Assembly (NCBI GenBank): GCA_018714695.1 | Contig: DVNB01000021.1 | Location: 1 to 54,172 of the forward strand | DNA: 54,172 nucleotides | DNA from: Candidatus Ornithomonoglobus merdipullorum | Lineage (GTDB): Bacteria > Bacillota > Clostridia > UBA1381 | Reading direction: 5' to 3' | Part shown: positions 977 through 47,381 of the stretch, piece by piece | Layout of the letters: each line of letters begins with the position of its first letter | How positions within the stretch are numbered: position 1 is the first letter of the stretch | Position numbers and translations under genes: made by a program | Notes under the pieces: model-generated | Told to the model about the DNA's origin: nothing | Seen by the model: only the letters and a program-made list of their open reading frames with translations | Databases searched by the model: none

Positions 977-2620
977 ATGGCTGAAAAGAAATACAAAGCA
1001 GCGGTCTATCTCCGCCTTTCCAAGGAGGACGGGGATAAGGAGGAGAGCTACAGTATATCAAATCAGAGTGATCTTGCGCTTGACTATATAGGCAGGCATG
1101 ATGATATAGAGCTTGCGGCAGAATTGGCTGATGACGGATATACCGGTTCGAATTTTAACAGACCCGCTTTTCGTGAGCTGATAGATAAGATATCTGCCGG
1201 AGAGGTGGATTGTGTGATAGTAAAGGATCTGTCGCGGTTTGCGAGGGATTATATCGGCACGGGATATTATCTTGAAAAGCTCTTTCCATCATTGGGAGTA
1301 CGGTTCATTTCTATAAATGACAATATCGATTCTATAGAGGATAACAGCTCTAATGCAAGACTTGTGATGGCATTCAAAAATGTTTTGAATGATTCCTACA
1401 TACATGACATTTCTGTAAAAATAAGAAGTCAATTCGAGATCAAAAGGAAAAAAGGCGAATTCATCGGCGCATTCGCTGTTTTTGGGTACAGAAAATCGCC
1501 GGAGGATAAGCATAAGCTTTGCATTGACGAGGAGGCGGCAAAGGTGGTCAGATATATTTTTGATCAGCGTATGCGCGGTATAAGCGCGAGCGCTATAGCC
1601 GATCAGCTCAATTTGTCGGATGTTCCATCACCGGCGGAGTATAAAAAGCTTTGCGGAAGTAACTTCGCCGCCAATCTGCAAAAATATCCGAAGTCTAAAT
1701 GGACTGCGAAGGCTGTTATACGTATTCTCACGAACGAGGTGTACACCGGAACTTTGATACAGGGCAAAAGCACTATCGTCAATTATAAGGTCAAAAAGGT
1801 GATCCAAAAGGACAGAAGTGAATGGAGCATAATAAAAAATGCCCATGAGCCCATAATAGACCTTGAGCAGTTCGAGGCGGTACAGGAGATATTAAAGCGG
1901 GACACGAGAGCTTGCCCGGGACGCAAGGAGCCGTATTTATTTTCCGGGTTCTTGGTATGTGCCGACTGCGGCGCATCTATGGTAAGGCGAACCTGCATTT
2001 ATAATAAGAAGCGGTATGCATATTACATGTGCTCGACAAATAAGGAGAGGCTTGGGTGCTCATCTCATAGGGCAAGTGAAAAGGCGCTGAACACTGCTGT
2101 TATCGAGGCTGTCAATGCGTACTGCCAAAATGCCGCCGAGCTTTCCGATAGGCTTGCAAGGATCCCGACGGAGCTTATAAAAGAGCGGGATATTGAGCGC
2201 ATAGAAAATGTGATAGGAGATAAGTACCGTGAGATATCAGATCTTGAGCGGACTATCTCTGTTGTGAATAAGCGCTGCGCAGACGAGCTTGAAACTAAGG
2301 AAGAGTGCGATGATATATGCGCCGATATACGGTCGCAGATCCGCGGATTGGAGAAGGATATCGAGAGGCTGAGAGAAGAAAAAGCGCAGAGCGCGGATGA
2401 ATACAAAAAGAATACACAATGGCTTAGGATATTCGCAGAACAGGGGACAGTAAAGAAGCTTGACAGAGTGATGCTTGCGCATCTTATAGACAAGATCTGC
2501 ATATATGAGGATAAGCGCATATCGATAAAATTCAGATACCGGGATAAATACGAGCAGCTGCTAACGCTTGTGGGGCAGCCTGACAATACGGGAGGTGAAC
2601 AGAGTGGCCCGCAAAAGTAA
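977..2620 (+). CDS. Large serine recombinase 1
   Basis: A 547-residue site-specific recombinase that would cut and rejoin DNA through a phosphoserine link. The resolvase-type catalytic domain covers roughly residues 6-150, with the nucleophile expected at Ser15 (VYLRLS, aligned with Ser15 of TnpX-type enzymes). It continues with SISNQ, DDGYTGSNFNRP and VIVKDLSRFARDY. A recombinase domain follows to about 300 (WTAKAVIRILTNEVYTG), then a zinc ribbon (CADC near 328, second Cys pair near 351-361) and a coiled-coil segment from about 395 to 500. The ribosome site is GGGAGG at 964-969. The gene looks intact, and its end overlaps recombinase 2. Confidence 0.95.
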   Translation: MAEKKYKAAVYLRLSKEDGDKEESYSISNQSDLALDYIGRHDDIELAAELADDGYTGSNFNRPAFRELIDKISAGEVDCVIVKDLSRFARDYIGTGYYLEKLFPSLGVRFISINDNIDSIEDNSSNARLVMAFKNVLNDSYIHDISVKIRSQFEIKRKKGEFIGAFAVFGYRKSPEDKHKLCIDEEAAKVVRYIFDQRMRGISASAIADQLNLSDVPSPAEYKKLCGSNFAANLQKYPKSKWTAKAVIRILTNEVYTGTLIQGKSTIVNYKVKKVIQKDRSEWSIIKNAHEPIIDLEQFEAVQEILKRDTRACPGRKEPYLFSGFLVCADCGASMVRRTCIYNKKRYAYYMCSTNKERLGCSSHRASEKALNTAVIEAVNAYCQNAAELSDRLARIPTELIKERDIERIENVIGDKYREISDLERTISVVNKRCADELETKEECDDICADIRSQIRGLEKDIERLREEKAQSADEYKKNTQWLRIFAEQGTVKKLDRVMLAHLIDKICIYEDKRISIKFRYRDKYEQLLTLVGQPDNTGGEQSGPQK

Positions 2621-4268
2621 AAGAGCGATCGCAACAGAAAAGAAATCACCGCGGAATATATTTAACACCGCAGTTTATATAAGACTGTCGATGGAGGATA
2701 GGCTGTACAAACACGGGAGTGATTCAATAGCCAATCAGCGTGAATTGATACTGGATTATCTGAAGGATAAGCATGATATGAGGGTATACGATATATATTG
2801 CGACAACGGAAGGAGTGGAACGGATTTTGACCGTGAGGAGTTCCGCAGGATGATGTATGATGTATACAACGGAAAGGTGAACTGCATAGTAGTAAAGGAT
2901 CTCTCGAGGTTCGGCAGGGAATACATAGAAACCGGAGATTATCTTGAGCGCATATTTCCGCTTTTGGGAGTGCGGTTTATTGCTGTAAATGACGGCTACG
3001 ACAATCGTGTTGATCCGTTTGACATCACAGTCCCCATAAAAAATGTTATCAACACGTTATACGCTAGGGATATTTCCGCGAAATCGGCTGCGGCTCTCAG
3101 AATGAAACAGGAAAACGGAGAATTTATCGGATCGTTTGCACCGTATGGCTACATAAGATCAAAAGAGGACCGTCACAAGCTTGTGATCGATCCCGAAGCG
3201 GCTGATGTGGTAAAGAAGATATTCGAATGGAAGGCGGAGAATGCGAGCTATGCCGAAATAAGCAGACGTCTCTACGCGATGAGTATACCGACGCCGAACA
3301 GACGAAAGTACGATCTTGGGATACTAAAAAGTGAAGTGCATAAAAACAACGTTTACTGGAGACCGGAAACAGTGCGGTCTATACTTGCAAATGAGACATA
3401 TACAGGCTGCCTGGTACAGGGACATATAAAATCACATTTTTACGAGGGAGGAAAAGACGAACGTGTTGACAGAGATGATCTGATCATCGTTCGAGGGACA
3501 CATGAACCGATAATTTCTGAGAATTTATTCAATACAGTCCGCGGCAAATGCGAGAAAGTGAAAAAAGCGTATGACGACAGAGCTGGGAAGTACAGAGAGC
3601 TTGGCAGCGATGTCAATATTTTCGTGAAGAAGGCATACTGCGGAGATTGCGGCAGGCCTCTGTCAAGATACAAAAAAGTCAACGGAGACCGAGTGGCGTA
3701 TTTCTATATATGCAGGCAGCATTCACAGTATCCGAATTCATGCCGTTTTGTGTCCATAGCTGAAACGGAATTGAAGGATATAGTATCGGAGACTTTAAAG
3801 AAACAGCTTGCATATCTTGTCGATACGCAGAAGCTTTTATCACAGGCGGGGAATGACACGTCTGTAAAACAAAAAAAGCATGATATTGTCAAGGAGCTCG
3901 GCAAAGCCGTATCACAGATAGGAAGAATACGAATGGCAAGGGTGCGAGCTGCATCTGATCACGCGAAGGAAATACTGTCGGAGAGTGAATACAGCGAGAT
4001 TAGCGCCGGGCTGAAAGCAGAGATGAAGGAAGCAGCGCAGTGCTATGAGGCGGCTGACAGAGCGAGAGAGCGGCTTGAAAAGCTTTTGGAGACTGAATCG
4101 CGGCTCGAAAAAACAGCGCAGCTTTGCGCGGCGGGACTGTCGCGATCCGTTATAGAAAGCTTTATAGACCGTGTAACGGTCTACCCCGATAAAGAAGCGG
4201 TGATAAAGTGGAACTTTGGAAATAAAGCGGAGCTGCTCGCATCACTAAACGGAGGCGGTACAGAGTGA
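2604..4268 (+). CDS. Large serine recombinase 2
   Basis: A 554-residue serine recombinase. The longest frame starts at ATG 2568, but GGAGGTG at 2591-2597 points to the GTG at 2604 (VARKSKRA), giving a 17-base overlap with recombinase 1 and probable translational coupling. The nucleophile is expected at Ser29 (VYIRLS), followed by DSIANQ, DNGRSGTDFDR and VVKDLSRFGREY. The recombinase domain includes YWRPETVRSILANETYTG. The zinc ribbon starts with CGDC near residue 345 and a later Cys pair. A coiled coil lies in the last third. It is a diverged paralogue of its neighbours and not a recent copy. Confidence 0.95.
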   Translation: MARKSKRAIATEKKSPRNIFNTAVYIRLSMEDRLYKHGSDSIANQRELILDYLKDKHDMRVYDIYCDNGRSGTDFDREEFRRMMYDVYNGKVNCIVVKDLSRFGREYIETGDYLERIFPLLGVRFIAVNDGYDNRVDPFDITVPIKNVINTLYARDISAKSAAALRMKQENGEFIGSFAPYGYIRSKEDRHKLVIDPEAADVVKKIFEWKAENASYAEISRRLYAMSIPTPNRRKYDLGILKSEVHKNNVYWRPETVRSILANETYTGCLVQGHIKSHFYEGGKDERVDRDDLIIVRGTHEPIISENLFNTVRGKCEKVKKAYDDRAGKYRELGSDVNIFVKKAYCGDCGRPLSRYKKVNGDRVAYFYICRQHSQYPNSCRFVSIAETELKDIVSETLKKQLAYLVDTQKLLSQAGNDTSVKQKKHDIVKELGKAVSQIGRIRMARVRAASDHAKEILSESEYSEISAGLKAEMKEAAQCYEAADRARERLEKLLETESRLEKTAQLCAAGLSRSVIESFIDRVTVYPDKEAVIKWNFGNKAELLASLNGGGTE

Positions 4269-5815
4269 AAGACGAGTATGTTATAGCAAAATATCTTCGT
4301 CTGTCCTCCGAGGACGGTGATAAGGCTGAAAGCGAGAGCATAACGAATCAGAGGAGACTTATCGATAATTACATTAGGAAAATGTTTGGGGACATTAAAC
4401 ACAGAACAGTCGAGCTTATCGATGACGGCTACAGCGGCACGAATATGGACCGTCCCGGAATGAAAAAGCTATTGATAATGGCGGAAACTCATACGGTCGA
4501 CTGTATAGTCGTAAAGGATTTTTCGCGATTTGCGCGCGATTATATTGAGATGGGCAGATATGTGGAGCAGAGATTCCCGGAATTGCAGATACGCTTTATT
4601 TCTATCAATGACGGATATGACAGCATAGAGCATATCGGATCAGCCGGCAGTATAGATGTTGCGTTGAAAAATATAATCTACACGATGTACAGCATGGACC
4701 TGTCCGAGAAAATCAAGAGCTCAAGGAAAGTGCTTTACCGGCAGGGAAAGAATATTGCGCCTTATGCCTTTTACGGCTATAAAAAGGATCCTGATGACAA
4801 GCATCACATCATTATAGATGAACCGGCAGCAAATGTTGTAAAGCGATTATTCGAAATGAGCGCACATGGGTGCGGAGCGACAGAGATCGCCAGGCGGCTC
4901 AATAACGAGGGAATACTCACTCCCGCACAGTACAAAAAGCGGCAGTATCCGAAATACGGGACGTGGGACCGTTTTGAGGGATATACGAAATGGACCTCAT
5001 CTATGGTGCGGGGACTGCTCAGGGACGAGCGATACACGGGGAAATATATAGGAGCGAGAAATGAACGTGTTGCTGTCGGCAGCAGAAAGCATCGCAGACG
5101 CAGTGAAGATGATATCGCAGTGATAGAACATGCGCATGAGCCTATCGTTTCTGACGAGCTATACAAGGCTGTGCAGCCCATTGTCCATGGCGGAACGAGA
5201 CCAAGGTCTGACAAGGGCATAATGAGGGGCTTGATACGCTGCGGCGGCTGCGGACACTCCATGGCGGCATACGGAGTAAAGAATGATAATGTTAAATATT
5301 ATTGCCCGTACAAGTCATACTCAGAGCATAATCAATGCTGTAAAACATCTATATGTGATAGTGAGCTTGCGACAATGATAATAGATATCGTGCAAAGAGA
5401 GCTTGAGAAAGCTGCTGATCCCGAAAAAGCGGACAAAGCCGTAAAGCGGGAGCTTTACGAGAAGATAACGGCTGCCGAACGGCTAAGGTGCAGTATTGAA
5501 AGTAATAAAAAGGAGAAACTGAGTCTTTATATGCGGCTTGCAAAAGGCGAATATGACGAAAATGATTTTTCGGAGCAGATCAAAGAGCTAAGCAGCAGCA
5601 TAAAAGAGAACGAAATGCGCCTGAACGCTCTGGAAGCCTCAATAAAGGAGACGAAGCAGCTTTCATTTAAAGACATGCTGCTGCGATTCAAAGAGTCGGC
5701 AGAGGATGACAGAGGGCTTATAAGGAAGCTGGTGAACACAGTTTACGTATATGAGGATAAGCGTATAAAAATAGTATGGAATTTCGGTGATATAAATCAT
5801 TTGATTGAAACTTAA
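4265..5815 (+). CDS. Large serine recombinase 3
   Basis: A 516-residue serine recombinase starting with GTG at 4265, whose GTGA overlaps the stop of recombinase 2 by four bases; GGAGGCGG lies just upstream. The nucleophile is expected at Ser14 (KYLRLS), then ESITNQ, DDGYSGTNMDRP and VVKDFSRFARDY. The recombinase domain ends with SMVRGLLRDERYTG; the zinc ribbon begins at CGGCG near residue 326; an acidic/basic coiled coil follows. No terminator is visible directly after it. Three coupled large recombinases imply either joint action at one att pair or separate partners for excision and integration, which the sequence does not decide. Confidence 0.95.
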   Translation: MKDEYVIAKYLRLSSEDGDKAESESITNQRRLIDNYIRKMFGDIKHRTVELIDDGYSGTNMDRPGMKKLLIMAETHTVDCIVVKDFSRFARDYIEMGRYVEQRFPELQIRFISINDGYDSIEHIGSAGSIDVALKNIIYTMYSMDLSEKIKSSRKVLYRQGKNIAPYAFYGYKKDPDDKHHIIIDEPAANVVKRLFEMSAHGCGATEIARRLNNEGILTPAQYKKRQYPKYGTWDRFEGYTKWTSSMVRGLLRDERYTGKYIGARNERVAVGSRKHRRRSEDDIAVIEHAHEPIVSDELYKAVQPIVHGGTRPRSDKGIMRGLIRCGGCGHSMAAYGVKNDNVKYYCPYKSYSEHNQCCKTSICDSELATMIIDIVQRELEKAADPEKADKAVKRELYEKITAAERLRCSIESNKKEKLSLYMRLAKGEYDENDFSEQIKELSSSIKENEMRLNALEASIKETKQLSFKDMLLRFKESAEDDRGLIRKLVNTVYVYEDKRIKIVWNFGDINHLIET

Positions 5816-44276: not shown

Positions 44277-46046
44277 ATGGACACAATGAAGGGATTAAAG
44301 CGCACAAATTACTGCGGAGAAACGGAGGGCGCCGGCAAGGTCGTGACTGTCGGAGGCTATGTGCAGAAGATACGCGACATGGGCAATCTTATATTCATAG
44401 ATCTGCGCGACAGAACGGGAATAGTTCAGCTCGCGTTTGACGACCACACCGACAGGGAGATATTCGAGAAGGCAAAGAGCTGCCGCGGCGAGTATGTTCT
44501 CATGGCAAAGGGCGTTGTAAGAGAGCGCGAGAGCGTGAACAAGGATATAAAGACGGGAAATATCGAGATATACGTTGACGATCTTAGGATCCTGGCAAAG
44601 GCGCAGACACCGCCGTTCGAGATCGTAAACGACACGAACGTAAACGAGGAGCTTCGTCTGAAGTACCGTTATCTCGATCTCAGAAGGAGCGTTTTGCAGA
44701 AGAACATCATGATGCGCGGCGAGATAGCGAAGGCTGCGCGCGATTACTTCCATGACAACGGGTTTATCGAGATCGAAACGCCGATGATGATGAAATCGAC
44801 GCCGGAGGGCGCGAGGGATTACATTGTGCCGTCAAGGATCCATCACGGCAAGTTCTACGCTCTGCCGCAGTCGCCGCAGATATATAAGCAGCTTCTGATG
44901 ATCTCGGGCTTTGACCGTTACATCCAGCTCGCGCGCTGCTTCAGAGATGAGGACCTGAGAGCCGACCGTCAGCCGGAGTTTACACAGATCGACCTTGAGA
45001 TGTCGTTTGTGGACGTTGACGATATATTGGAGATGGCTGAGGGATTTATAAAATATCTCTATAAGACGGTCCTGGATGTGGAGATCCCGACACCGCTGCC
45101 GCGTCTTACGTATAATGAGGCTATGGAGCGTTACGGAAGCGACAAGCCGGATACTCGCTTTGGTATGGAGCTGATCGACATTTCCGACGCGGTAAAGGAC
45201 AGTGAATTTGTTGTGTTCAAGTCCGCGCTTGAAAACGGCGGCTCGGTAAGGGCGATAGTCGTTCCGAACGCCGCATCGGTATATACGCGCAAGGAGATAG
45301 ACAAGCTTGTAGAATACGCGAAAGGCATAGGCGCAAAGGGACTTGCCTATGTTCGCTGGGTGGACGACGAGCCGAACGCAAGCTTTAAAAAGTTCTTCAC
45401 GCCGGAGGAAATAATGGCGCTCATGGACAGGCTCGGAGCGAAAAAGGGCGACGTCGTGCTGATCGTTGCCGATAAGGACAAGGTAACGCTTCCGGTGCTG
45501 GGTGCGCTGAGACTGAAGACGGCAAAGAGAATGGACATCATCCCCGGGGGCTGGAATTTCCTCTGGATAACGGATTTCCCGTTCTTCGAATATGACGAGG
45601 AAAGCGGCACATGGGCGGCGATGCATCATCCGTTTACGATGCCGAACGACGAGTGCATACAGTATCTTGACAGCGCGCCGGAAAAGGTCATAGCGAAGGC
45701 GTTCGACCTTGTGCTCAACGGAACGGAGCTTTCGAGCGGCTCGATACGTATAAACGATTACGAGCTGCAGCAGAAGATGTTCGAATCGCTCGGCCTTACG
45801 GACGAGGAGATAGAGGCGAAGTTCGGATTCCTGGTAGAGGCGTACAAGTACGGCGCGGCTCCGCACGGCGGTATGGGTATCGGTCTTGACAGGCTTGCGA
45901 TGCTCATGGCGGGCTGTGACAGTCTGAGGGACGTGACGGCGTTCCCGAAGGTGCAGAACGCGTCCGAGCTGATGTCTCAGGCGCCGGGAACGGTCGACGA
46001 GACGCAGCTTGAGGAGTTGGGAATAGAGCTGAAGCTTGAAGTTTGA
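44277..46046 (+). CDS. aspS: Aspartyl-tRNA synthetase
   Basis: 589 residues from ATG 44277 (GAAGGGG upstream; the TTG at 44271 is a less likely alternative). OB-fold anticodon domain from residue about 15 (VVTVGGYVQKIRDMGNLIFI), class II core (RYLDLRRSVLQKNIMMR, FTQIDLEMSFVDVDD) and a GAD insertion domain. The C-terminal GGMGIGLDRLAMLMAG with TAFPKVQNASELM is typical of bacterial AspRS. Whether it is discriminating or makes Asp-tRNA-Asn as well cannot be read reliably. Its stop codon lies in the first part of a repeated unit. Confidence 0.97.
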   Translation: MDTMKGLKRTNYCGETEGAGKVVTVGGYVQKIRDMGNLIFIDLRDRTGIVQLAFDDHTDREIFEKAKSCRGEYVLMAKGVVRERESVNKDIKTGNIEIYVDDLRILAKAQTPPFEIVNDTNVNEELRLKYRYLDLRRSVLQKNIMMRGEIAKAARDYFHDNGFIEIETPMMMKSTPEGARDYIVPSRIHHGKFYALPQSPQIYKQLLMISGFDRYIQLARCFRDEDLRADRQPEFTQIDLEMSFVDVDDILEMAEGFIKYLYKTVLDVEIPTPLPRLTYNEAMERYGSDKPDTRFGMELIDISDAVKDSEFVVFKSALENGGSVRAIVVPNAASVYTRKEIDKLVEYAKGIGAKGLAYVRWVDDEPNASFKKFFTPEEIMALMDRLGAKKGDVVLIVADKDKVTLPVLGALRLKTAKRMDIIPGGWNFLWITDFPFFEYDEESGTWAAMHHPFTMPNDECIQYLDSAPEKVIAKAFDLVLNGTELSSGSIRINDYELQQKMFESLGLTDEEIEAKFGFLVEAYKYGAAPHGGMGIGLDRLAMLMAGCDSLRDVTAFPKVQNASELMSQAPGTVDETQLEELGIELKLEV

Positions 46047-46060
46047 GAAAAGATAGCCTG

Positions 46061-46130
46061 CGCATCTCGCGCCCCTTGGCAGACTCACATACAGGGAGTA
46101 TAGCTTCGCCTGCCAAGGAACACGACATGC
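46061..46130 (+). repeat. 70-bp repeat downstream of aspS, copy 1
   Basis: It contains the arms CCTTGGCAG and CTGCCAAGG around a 26-base middle (ACTCACATACAGGGAGTATA in part). It is almost identical to 46199-46268. Flanking homology also extends upstream into the aspS stop region (AAGTTTGAGAAAA) and appears downstream (TTTCCTCAAACGGC). Confidence 0.92.
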
Positions 46131-46198
46131 TTGGCTCTCTTTCCTCAAACGGCTTTGGTGAAAGAATTTCACTGTTATAAGTTTGAAAAAATGCTCGT

Positions 46199-46268
46199 CG
46201 CATCTCACGCCCTTTGGCAGACTCACATACAGGGAGTATAGCTTCGCCTGCCAAAGAACACGACATGC
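46199..46268 (+). repeat. 70-bp repeat downstream of aspS, copy 2
   Basis: Same unit as copy 1 with three changes; two of them form a compensatory pair in the stem (CTTTGGCAG with CTGCCAAAG). After it come small hairpins (CCGCC/GGCGG, CGCC/GGCG, CTTTTGC/GCAAAAG between 46275 and 46321) and TTTCCTCAAACAGC, which echoes the flank of copy 1. No gene is present in 46047-46406. Confidence 0.92.
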
Positions 46269-46406
46269 GCTCACCGCCAAGAAGGGCGGACGCCGAAGGC
46301 GGCTTTTGCGCAGCAAAAGTGATGAAAAGGAGCATTTTCCTCAAACAGCTATGGCATATTTATAAGATAAACGGTTTACGGTCTATATTTGAGAGGAATT
46401 GATATA

Positions 46407-47381
46407 ATGATTGAGGTCAAAAACCTTGTAAAGAATTATGGTGATAAGCGAGCTTTGAACAATATAAGCTTTACGGTCGGGGAAGACGAGATACTCGGTT
46501 TCCTCGGACCGAACGGCGCGGGCAAATCCACGACGATGAATATCCTGACGGGATATATATCAATGACTTCCGGGGAAGTGAAGATCGGCGGCATAGATAT
46601 ATTGAAGGATCCGATCGGCGCAAAGCGGCTTATCGGCTATCTGCCCGAGCAGCCGCCGCTCTATCCGGAGATGACGGTGACGGAATATCTGGATTTCGTC
46701 TGTGAGCTCAAGGGCGTGAAGGACAGGGCGGAGCAGGTGAAGGCGATCGCCGCAAAGACGGGAGTCGGCAATGTTCTCGAACGCAGGATAGGGAATCTGT
46801 CCAAGGGCTACAGGCAGCGTGTCGGACTTGCGGCGGCTCTGGCGGGTGATCCGAAGGTGCTGATACTTGACGAGCCGACCGTCGGACTCGATCCCGGACA
46901 GATTGTAGAGATAAGATCGCTCATAAGATCGCTCGGTAAAGCGCATACGGTAATACTGAGTTCGCATATCCTTTCTGAGATAAGCGCCGTCTGCGACAGG
47001 GTGCTTATAATAAACGACGGAAAGATCGCGGCGGAGGATACGCCGGAGAATATAAAGCGCAGTGTATTTGGTTCGGATCTTCGCATACTTATACGAGCTG
47101 ACGGAACGGATGACGAAATAAGAGCAGTACTTGACAAATTGAGTGAGGATTTGACATATGAAAAACGTAAAGATACGGATGAGTACGAGTTGGCATTCGG
47201 AAACAGAGAAAGTAGAGAAATAAGCAGAAAGTTGTTCTTTGCGTTTGCTAATGCAAATCTTCCTATACTTATGCAACGCGAGGAGGAGATTACTTTGGAG
47301 GATGTATTCATGAAGATTACGGCTAATAGTCGTAACTCTGAGATCACATCTTCGGCGGGAAAGGAGGGGAAGATAGAATGA
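46407..47381 (+). CDS. ABC transporter ATP-binding protein (GldA-like)
   Basis: 324 residues from ATG 46407 (AGAGGA upstream). Walker A GPNGAGKST near residue 38, signature LSKGYRQRVGLAAALAG, Walker B VLILDEPTVGLDPGQI, switch His in SSHILSEISAVCDRV. The C-terminal third is an accessory domain ending LEDVFMKIT, as in ABC-2 exporters. It is the motor for the permease that follows (4-base overlap) in the four-gene GldA-GldF-GldG-DUF4340 module. Confidence 0.93.
   Translation: MIEVKNLVKNYGDKRALNNISFTVGEDEILGFLGPNGAGKSTTMNILTGYISMTSGEVKIGGIDILKDPIGAKRLIGYLPEQPPLYPEMTVTEYLDFVCELKGVKDRAEQVKAIAAKTGVGNVLERRIGNLSKGYRQRVGLAAALAGDPKVLILDEPTVGLDPGQIVEIRSLIRSLGKAHTVILSSHILSEISAVCDRVLIINDGKIAAEDTPENIKRSVFGSDLRILIRADGTDDEIRAVLDKLSEDLTYEKRKDTDEYELAFGNRESREISRKLFFAFANANLPILMQREEEITLEDVFMKITANSRNSEITSSAGKEGKIE

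What the first reader, a model, noticed from the sequence alone, without database searches (positions are those of the whole stretch)
46061..46268. Two 70-bp repeats with a compensatory base-pair change in the stem
Copy 1 has CCTTGGCAG...CTGCCAAGG; copy 2 has CTTTGGCAG...CTGCCAAAG. A C-G pair has become T-A with both sides changed, while the 26-base middle is identical. That argues for a selected hairpin (RNA or single-stranded DNA) and not mere duplication. Flanks (AAGTTTGA.AAAA and TTTCCTCAAAC.GC) are repeated too, the first overlapping the aspS stop.
Basis: seen in the sequence. Interest (0 to 1): 0.6.

Follow-up and report, generated by a model that had tools for sequence, protein, structure and literature searches.

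The report
Mobile hairpins inside bacterial ribosome-binding sites
The two repeats belong to a large family of small DNA hairpins, found so far only in Clostridia, that appear to copy themselves into the few bases between a gene's ribosome-binding site and its start codon, bring a replacement ribosome-binding site with them, and conserve the fold of one particular strand.

Summary
In detail: two 84-base copies (89% identical) with a C-G to T-A double change. They are cores of two larger quasi-palindromes (46041-46150, 46181-46346) between aspS and an ABC-ATPase gene. Close copies occur only here in this genome, but a covariance model built without the window copies finds relatives in 53 of 95 genomes of the order (all one family of gut/rumen Clostridia) and some elsewhere in the class. 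Pairing is selected: 19 of 35 pairs have double changes. The folding strand is the one opposite the genes: it folds better in 148 of 153 elements, and isolated mismatches on the gene strand are A.C rather than G.U (62 to 7 in 57 cluster representatives). Elements typically overlap an upstream stop codon; a 30-40-base tail carries a Shine-Dalgarno sequence. In genomes with recent bursts they split native ribosome-binding sites, and an orthologous empty site shows ~143 bp inserted between Shine-Dalgarno and start codon of argF. Downstream genes are unrelated. No Rfam family matches; no mobilising enzyme was found. Best reading: a new family of non-autonomous mobile hairpins resembling REPINs and ERIC, with unusual ribosome-binding-site targeting. 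How it moves is unknown.

The parts
46041..46150 (-). Element 1: hairpin (GTTTGAG...CTCAAAC). The strand given is the one that folds best.
   Evidence: 87.2 bits with covariance model R1, which was built without it; MFE -69.6 kcal/mol on the - strand, -45.4 on the + strand
46151..46179 (+). Tail of element 1 (GGCTTTGGTGAAAGAATTTCACTGTTATA), a type-A tail with a weakened Shine-Dalgarno sequence
   Evidence: Compare tails in other genomes
46181..46346 (-). Element 2: hairpin (GTTTGAA...CTCAAAC) with a ~61-bp insert in its 3' arm (about 46269-46329)
   Evidence: 53.8 bits with R1; MFE -76.9 on the - strand, -59.6 on the + strand
46347..46370 (+). Decayed tail of element 2 (AGCTATGGCATATTTATAAG...), no Shine-Dalgarno sequence left
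   Evidence: By comparison with type-A tails
46074..46118 (.).
46212..46256 (.). Inner stem-loop of element 2 with the changed pair T46213-A46255
44271..46046 (+). aspS (aspartyl-tRNA synthetase); its stop codon lies in the first bases of element 1
   Evidence: Pfam tRNA-synt_2, GAD; ORF
46407..47381 (+). ABC-transporter ATPase gene downstream, with its own native ribosome-binding site (GAGAGGAA, about 46391-46398)
   Evidence: Pfam ABC_tran; sequence

Best explanation
The two repeats are old members of a family of small, protein-less mobile elements. Each unit is a ~108-nt hairpin plus a 30-40-nt tail. Shown: the hairpin is kept paired by covarying changes; the strand that folds best is opposite to the neighbouring genes, and on that strand the unit reads 5' tail, then hairpin; the tail carries a Shine-Dalgarno sequence on the gene strand; near-identical copies are dispersed within single genomes; presence is lineage-specific; recent insertions fall between a native Shine-Dalgarno sequence and its start codon, and elements in general tend to overlap the upstream gene's stop codon. 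The element thus supplies the upstream gene's stop and the downstream gene's ribosome-binding site, so an operon can keep working. Inferred: a single-stranded intermediate of the folding strand (DNA rather than RNA, as no promoter of its own is evident) moves through an enzyme supplied in trans, and its 5' tail, complementary to ribosome-binding sites, helps choose the target. A likely side effect is to uncouple translation of the two flanking genes.
For: Covariation. Model finds the window copies and 53 genomes. Strand asymmetry: 148 of 153 with RNA energies, 150 of 153 with DNA energies, 20 of 20 in elements taken from other families of the class; isolated mismatches A.C 62 against G.U 7 on the gene strand, 35 representatives against 3, p about 7e-8. 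Position: 73 of 114 upstream stops end 0-10 nt inside the element; start codon a median of 32 nt after the hairpin, with a Shine-Dalgarno match in 72 of 93; strong Shine-Dalgarno match in 31% of left flanks against 7% of controls. Flanks join to ordinary ribosome-binding sites in G021, G024 and G338. Empty argF site in G049; six genus relatives without an element at the aspS junction. About 19 near-identical dispersed copies in G021. Unrelated downstream genes.
Against: No mobilising enzyme identified; Y1 transposases are missing from several element-rich genomes. Exact ends and any target duplication are not fixed: only one close filled/empty pair. Column counts in the variable stems are nearly balanced between G.U and A.C, so the strand signal is uneven, and related copies are not fully independent. 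The window's own copies no longer split a ribosome-binding site. All genomes are incomplete MAGs.
Confidence: 0.58

Rival explanations
1. A cis-regulatory RNA on the mRNA strand (riboswitch, attenuator, thermometer or ribonuclease site) that controls the downstream gene.
For: Conserved structure just upstream of start codons, in line with the genes; the hairpin is stable on the mRNA strand too (mean -38.4 kcal/mol).
Against: The opposite strand folds better in 148 of 153 and wobble pairs lie on the opposite strand. Twenty downstream genes belong to unrelated families. Presence is patchy at orthologous sites. No Rfam match.
Confidence: 0.12
2. An ordinary MITE: terminal inverted repeats cut and pasted by a DDE transposase acting in trans, with pairing kept only because both ends bind the enzyme.
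For: Long inverted repeats, small size, dispersed copies, no coding capacity.
Against: The 3' inverted repeat is not terminal: a conserved 30-40-nt tail follows it inside the mobile unit. End sequences vary between copies while still pairing. Strand-biased mismatches are not expected. No full-length partner with a transposase was found.
Confidence: 0.15
3. Quasi-palindrome correction: arms are copied onto each other by template switching during replication, so paired changes need no selection.
For: Explains single double changes between close copies such as the window pair.
Against: Gives perfect palindromes without strand bias, whereas mismatches are 62 A.C to 7 G.U and conserved asymmetric internal loops persist.
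Confidence: 0.08
4. A local tandem duplication with a chance double change, nothing more.
For: Near-identical cores occur only at this place in the genome.
Against: Relatives with the same fold exist in dozens of genomes, and the two copies have different outer stems that both pair.
Confidence: 0.02

Closest known systems
REPINs / REP elements moved by RAYT transposases (PMC3116915)
   Same: Non-autonomous dispersed hairpins with compensatory changes; proposed single-stranded intermediate made of a hairpin with a 5' tail; tandem arrays also occur.
   Different: No GTAG-type end seen by eye; Y1 (RAYT-type) transposase not found in several element-rich genomes; carries a Shine-Dalgarno sequence and sits in ribosome-binding sites.
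ERIC / IRU, NEMIS, RUP and related bacterial MITEs (reviewed in PMC2229807)
   Same: ~100-170 bp, intergenic, co-directional with operons, long stem-loops, lineage-specific insertions; ERIC is co-transcribed and its effect depends on orientation.
   Different: Different sequence; inverted repeat not terminal because of the 3' tail; strand-specific folding and Shine-Dalgarno/start-codon targeting are not described in that review or in the 2024 MITE review PMC10969869.
Integron attC sites (own knowledge)
   Same: Imperfect palindrome just after a stop codon; sequence variable, structure kept; the bottom strand is the folded one.
   Different: No GTTRRRY/RYYYAAC boxes seen at the ends by eye; dispersed in ordinary operons, not in cassette arrays; an integrase was not searched for.

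Membership tests
REPIN / REP | RAYT (Y1-type) transposase in the host genome | tested here: not met
   PF01797 has no match in G005, G009, G027, G002, G012, G026, which carry many elements; genomes are incomplete MAGs
REPIN / REP | Hairpin kept by compensatory changes | tested here: met
REPIN / REP | Two inverted short REPs with a conserved tetranucleotide end (GTAG or CGTC type) | tested here: not met
   Ends are GTTTGR...YCAAAC or NTAACGTG...CACGTTA, judged by eye
MITE (canonical) | Terminal inverted repeats at both ends of the mobile unit | tested here: not met
   A conserved 30-40-nt tail lies outside the 3' repeat but inside the inserted unit
MITE (canonical) | Target-site duplication | tested here: inconclusive
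   ATAA/TTAA-like bases at both ends in many copies, but only one close filled/empty pair
MITE (canonical) | Dispersed, no coding capacity, mobile | tested here: met
Riboswitch or other cis-regulatory RNA | Structure selected on the mRNA strand | tested here: not met
Riboswitch or other cis-regulatory RNA | Functionally related downstream genes | tested here: not met
Integron attC | R boxes GTTRRRY / RYYYAAC at the ends | tested here: inconclusive
   Not seen by eye; no systematic scan
Integron attC | IntI-type integrase in the genome | not tested
   No search was made
Any Rfam family | Match at the family's gathering score | tested here: not met
   relaxed search

The most novel reading that the evidence does not exclude
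A new class of mobile element that is guided into ribosome-binding sites: the folded strand (single-stranded DNA or an antisense RNA) carries a 5' tail complementary to Shine-Dalgarno sequences, inserts between the Shine-Dalgarno sequence and the start codon, and replaces the ribosome-binding site of the gene it enters.
Probability: 0.25. Interest if true: 0.85.

Novelty: new variant of a known kind. Interest (0 to 1): 0.62.

Why it matters
Mobile elements usually damage the genes they enter. One that lands in the ribosome-binding site and brings a substitute could spread through operons at little cost and rewire translation of many genes. If the target is chosen by base pairing of the tail, it would be a small guided insertion system. 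The mismatch-type test used here also gives a simple way to ask which strand of a palindrome is under selection.

Tried and rejected
Rfam at gathering and relaxed thresholds: nothing relevant. IS200/IS605 link through Y1_Tnp: does not follow copy number, and nine Y1 loci, including the best ones of G021, G024, G060 and G013, hold no element match. Riboswitch regulon: downstream genes unrelated. Phages, plasmids and viral contigs: no match, with type-A queries only. The first strand test by alignment columns was ambiguous in the variable stems, so it was repeated without a family alignment on isolated mismatches. A near-exact pattern for the core found only the window copies. Paper searches gave reviews of ERIC, NEMIS, RUP and REPIN but no description of this family in the held library. 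A cassette-style site-specific recombinase and IS110-type bridge RNA were considered, but no target core or enzyme could be tied to the element.

Full report
Observation. The window holds two copies of an 84-base repeat at 46047-46130 and 46185-46268, 89% identical and 138 bp apart. The repeated flanks AGTTTGA and CCTCAAAC are the ends of one long inverted repeat, so the real units are hairpins at 46041-46150 and 46181-46346, the second with a ~61-bp insert. The inner parts of their outer stems are quite different (AAAGATAGCC/GGCTCTCTTT against AAAATGCTC/GAGCATTTT), yet each pairs.

Family. In its own genome close copies occur only here, with two diverged members elsewhere. A DNA search of relatives found diverged copies in ten other genomes. 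Eleven relatives, without the window copies, were aligned and folded: 16 of 29 predicted pairs have changes on both sides. With the full structure, 19 of 35 pairs have such changes; the covariation score is 0.329 against 0.140 in shuffles and at most 0.123 when the partner is slid. A covariance model of these finds the window copies (87.2 and 53.8 bits) and matches in 53 of 95 genomes of the order, all in the window's family and none among 25 genomes of other families. A class-wide sample adds a few other families, including one genome with at least 11 copies. Named records with a core match are MAGs, several of them from gut or rumen, labelled Clostridia, Oscillospiraceae, Eubacteriales or Ruminococcus. 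Rfam has no match.

Which strand. I collected 153 distinct elements, all read in the direction of the model, which for the large majority is the direction of the flanking genes. The opposite strand folds better in 148 of 153 (mean -50.7 against -38.4 kcal/mol), in 150 of 153 with DNA energies, and in all 20 elements taken separately from other families of the class. In 57 representatives clustered at 75% identity, isolated single mismatches inside helices are A.C 62 and G.U 7 on the gene strand; 35 representatives lean one way and 3 the other. On the opposite strand these are G.U wobbles, and the many pyrimidine mismatches become G.A, A.A and G.G. The signal is uneven: column counts on the model alignments are near balance in the variable stems (my reading), so strand selection is likely, not proven. 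Element 1 folds at -69.6 on the strand opposite aspS and -45.4 on the aspS strand. RNA and single-stranded DNA cannot be told apart here.

Where it sits. A gene running with the element lies on both sides in 91 of 153 and on at least one side in 146. Of 114 with a co-directional upstream reading frame ending close by, 73 have the stop codon ending 0-10 nt inside the element. A conserved tail follows the hairpin in two main forms: type A ...CAAAC GGTTTTGTGAAAGGAGTTAATGGTCATAAATATG and type B ...CACGTTA TGATTTGTGCCGCCGCAAGGCGGCGGAATGGAGGATTAATATG. The downstream start lies a median of 32 nt after the hairpin, with a Shine-Dalgarno match in 72 of 93 cases. In genomes with recent bursts (G021, G024, G338) the left flank is itself a Shine-Dalgarno sequence, and left plus right flank reads as an ordinary ribosome-binding site, for example AAGGAGTTGAT|AATTATG. 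Strong Shine-Dalgarno matches occur in 31% of left flanks against 7% of control windows.

Empty sites. At argF, G024 reads AAAGGAGAAAT[~143 bp]AAAAATGAAGG where G049 (94% identical protein) reads AAAGGGGAGAAATGGAAATGAAGG. At the window's aspS junction, six relatives in the genus with the same downstream gene have no element, and one (G002) has a different hairpin there; the model finds no match at those junctions. Some junctions are occupied by different element types in different genera (thiG, argF, pyrK, and purM by my reading of the protein), which suggests repeated targeting, though I did not compute how often chance would give this.

Neighbours. Twenty downstream proteins belong to unrelated families, so a shared regulon is unlikely. 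In the window the elements lie between aspS and an ABC export cluster; aspS ends inside element 1, and the ATPase gene keeps its own ribosome-binding site downstream of element 2, so this looks like an older, decayed state.

Mechanism. Shown: structure conservation, dispersed near-identical copies within a genome, lineage-specific presence, insertion into ribosome-binding sites in several genomes, carriage of a replacement Shine-Dalgarno sequence. Inferred: movement through a single-stranded intermediate of the folding strand, in which the unit reads 5' tail then hairpin, like the excised REPIN intermediate described in PMC3116915, and tail-guided targeting. The enzyme is unknown: Y1 transposases are missing from several element-rich genomes, though the assemblies are incomplete. 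No copy was found in phage, plasmid or viral collections with type-A queries.

Comparison. It works most like REPINs and ERIC-type intergenic palindromes (PMC2229807, PMC3116915) but does not meet the tests for canonical MITE ends or, so far, for a Y1 enzyme. I file it as a new variant of small non-autonomous mobile repeats.

Noticed in passing
window 977-5815: Three consecutive genes for large serine recombinases (Resolvase + Recombinase domains), about 40 kb from the repeats; possibly the edge of an integrated element.
   Followed up: no
window 46269-46329: A ~61-bp insert with small hairpins (CCGCCAAGAAGGGCGG, GCCGAAGGC) sits in the 3' arm of element 2; origin unknown.
   Followed up: no
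L108 (G002), just after the aspS stop: At the same aspS/ABC junction another species has a different hairpin (AAATATAAGCGGCACATTTT...GACCTGTACCGCTTATTTT), perhaps a strongly diverged relative; the model does not match it.
   Followed up: partly
type-A tails, e.g. L172, L162, L196: The tail holds an upstream ATG (ATGGTTATAAATATG) that is usually in frame with the native start, so proteins may gain a short MVI(N/I) extension.
   Followed up: partly
L042/L144/L153 (thiG), L075/L196 (argF), L043/L149 (pyrK), L211/L215 (purM): The same gene junction carries an element of a different type in different genera: repeated insertion, or replacement at a kept site.
   Followed up: partly
L168, L180, L192, L199, L209, L210: Nested tandem arrays in which the second copy has a shortened outer stem, as if arrays grow by duplication of the inner part.
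   Followed up: no
L029 2227-2333: A TPP riboswitch lies upstream in the same direction as the element in front of thiG, so the element sits inside a thiamin operon.
   Followed up: no
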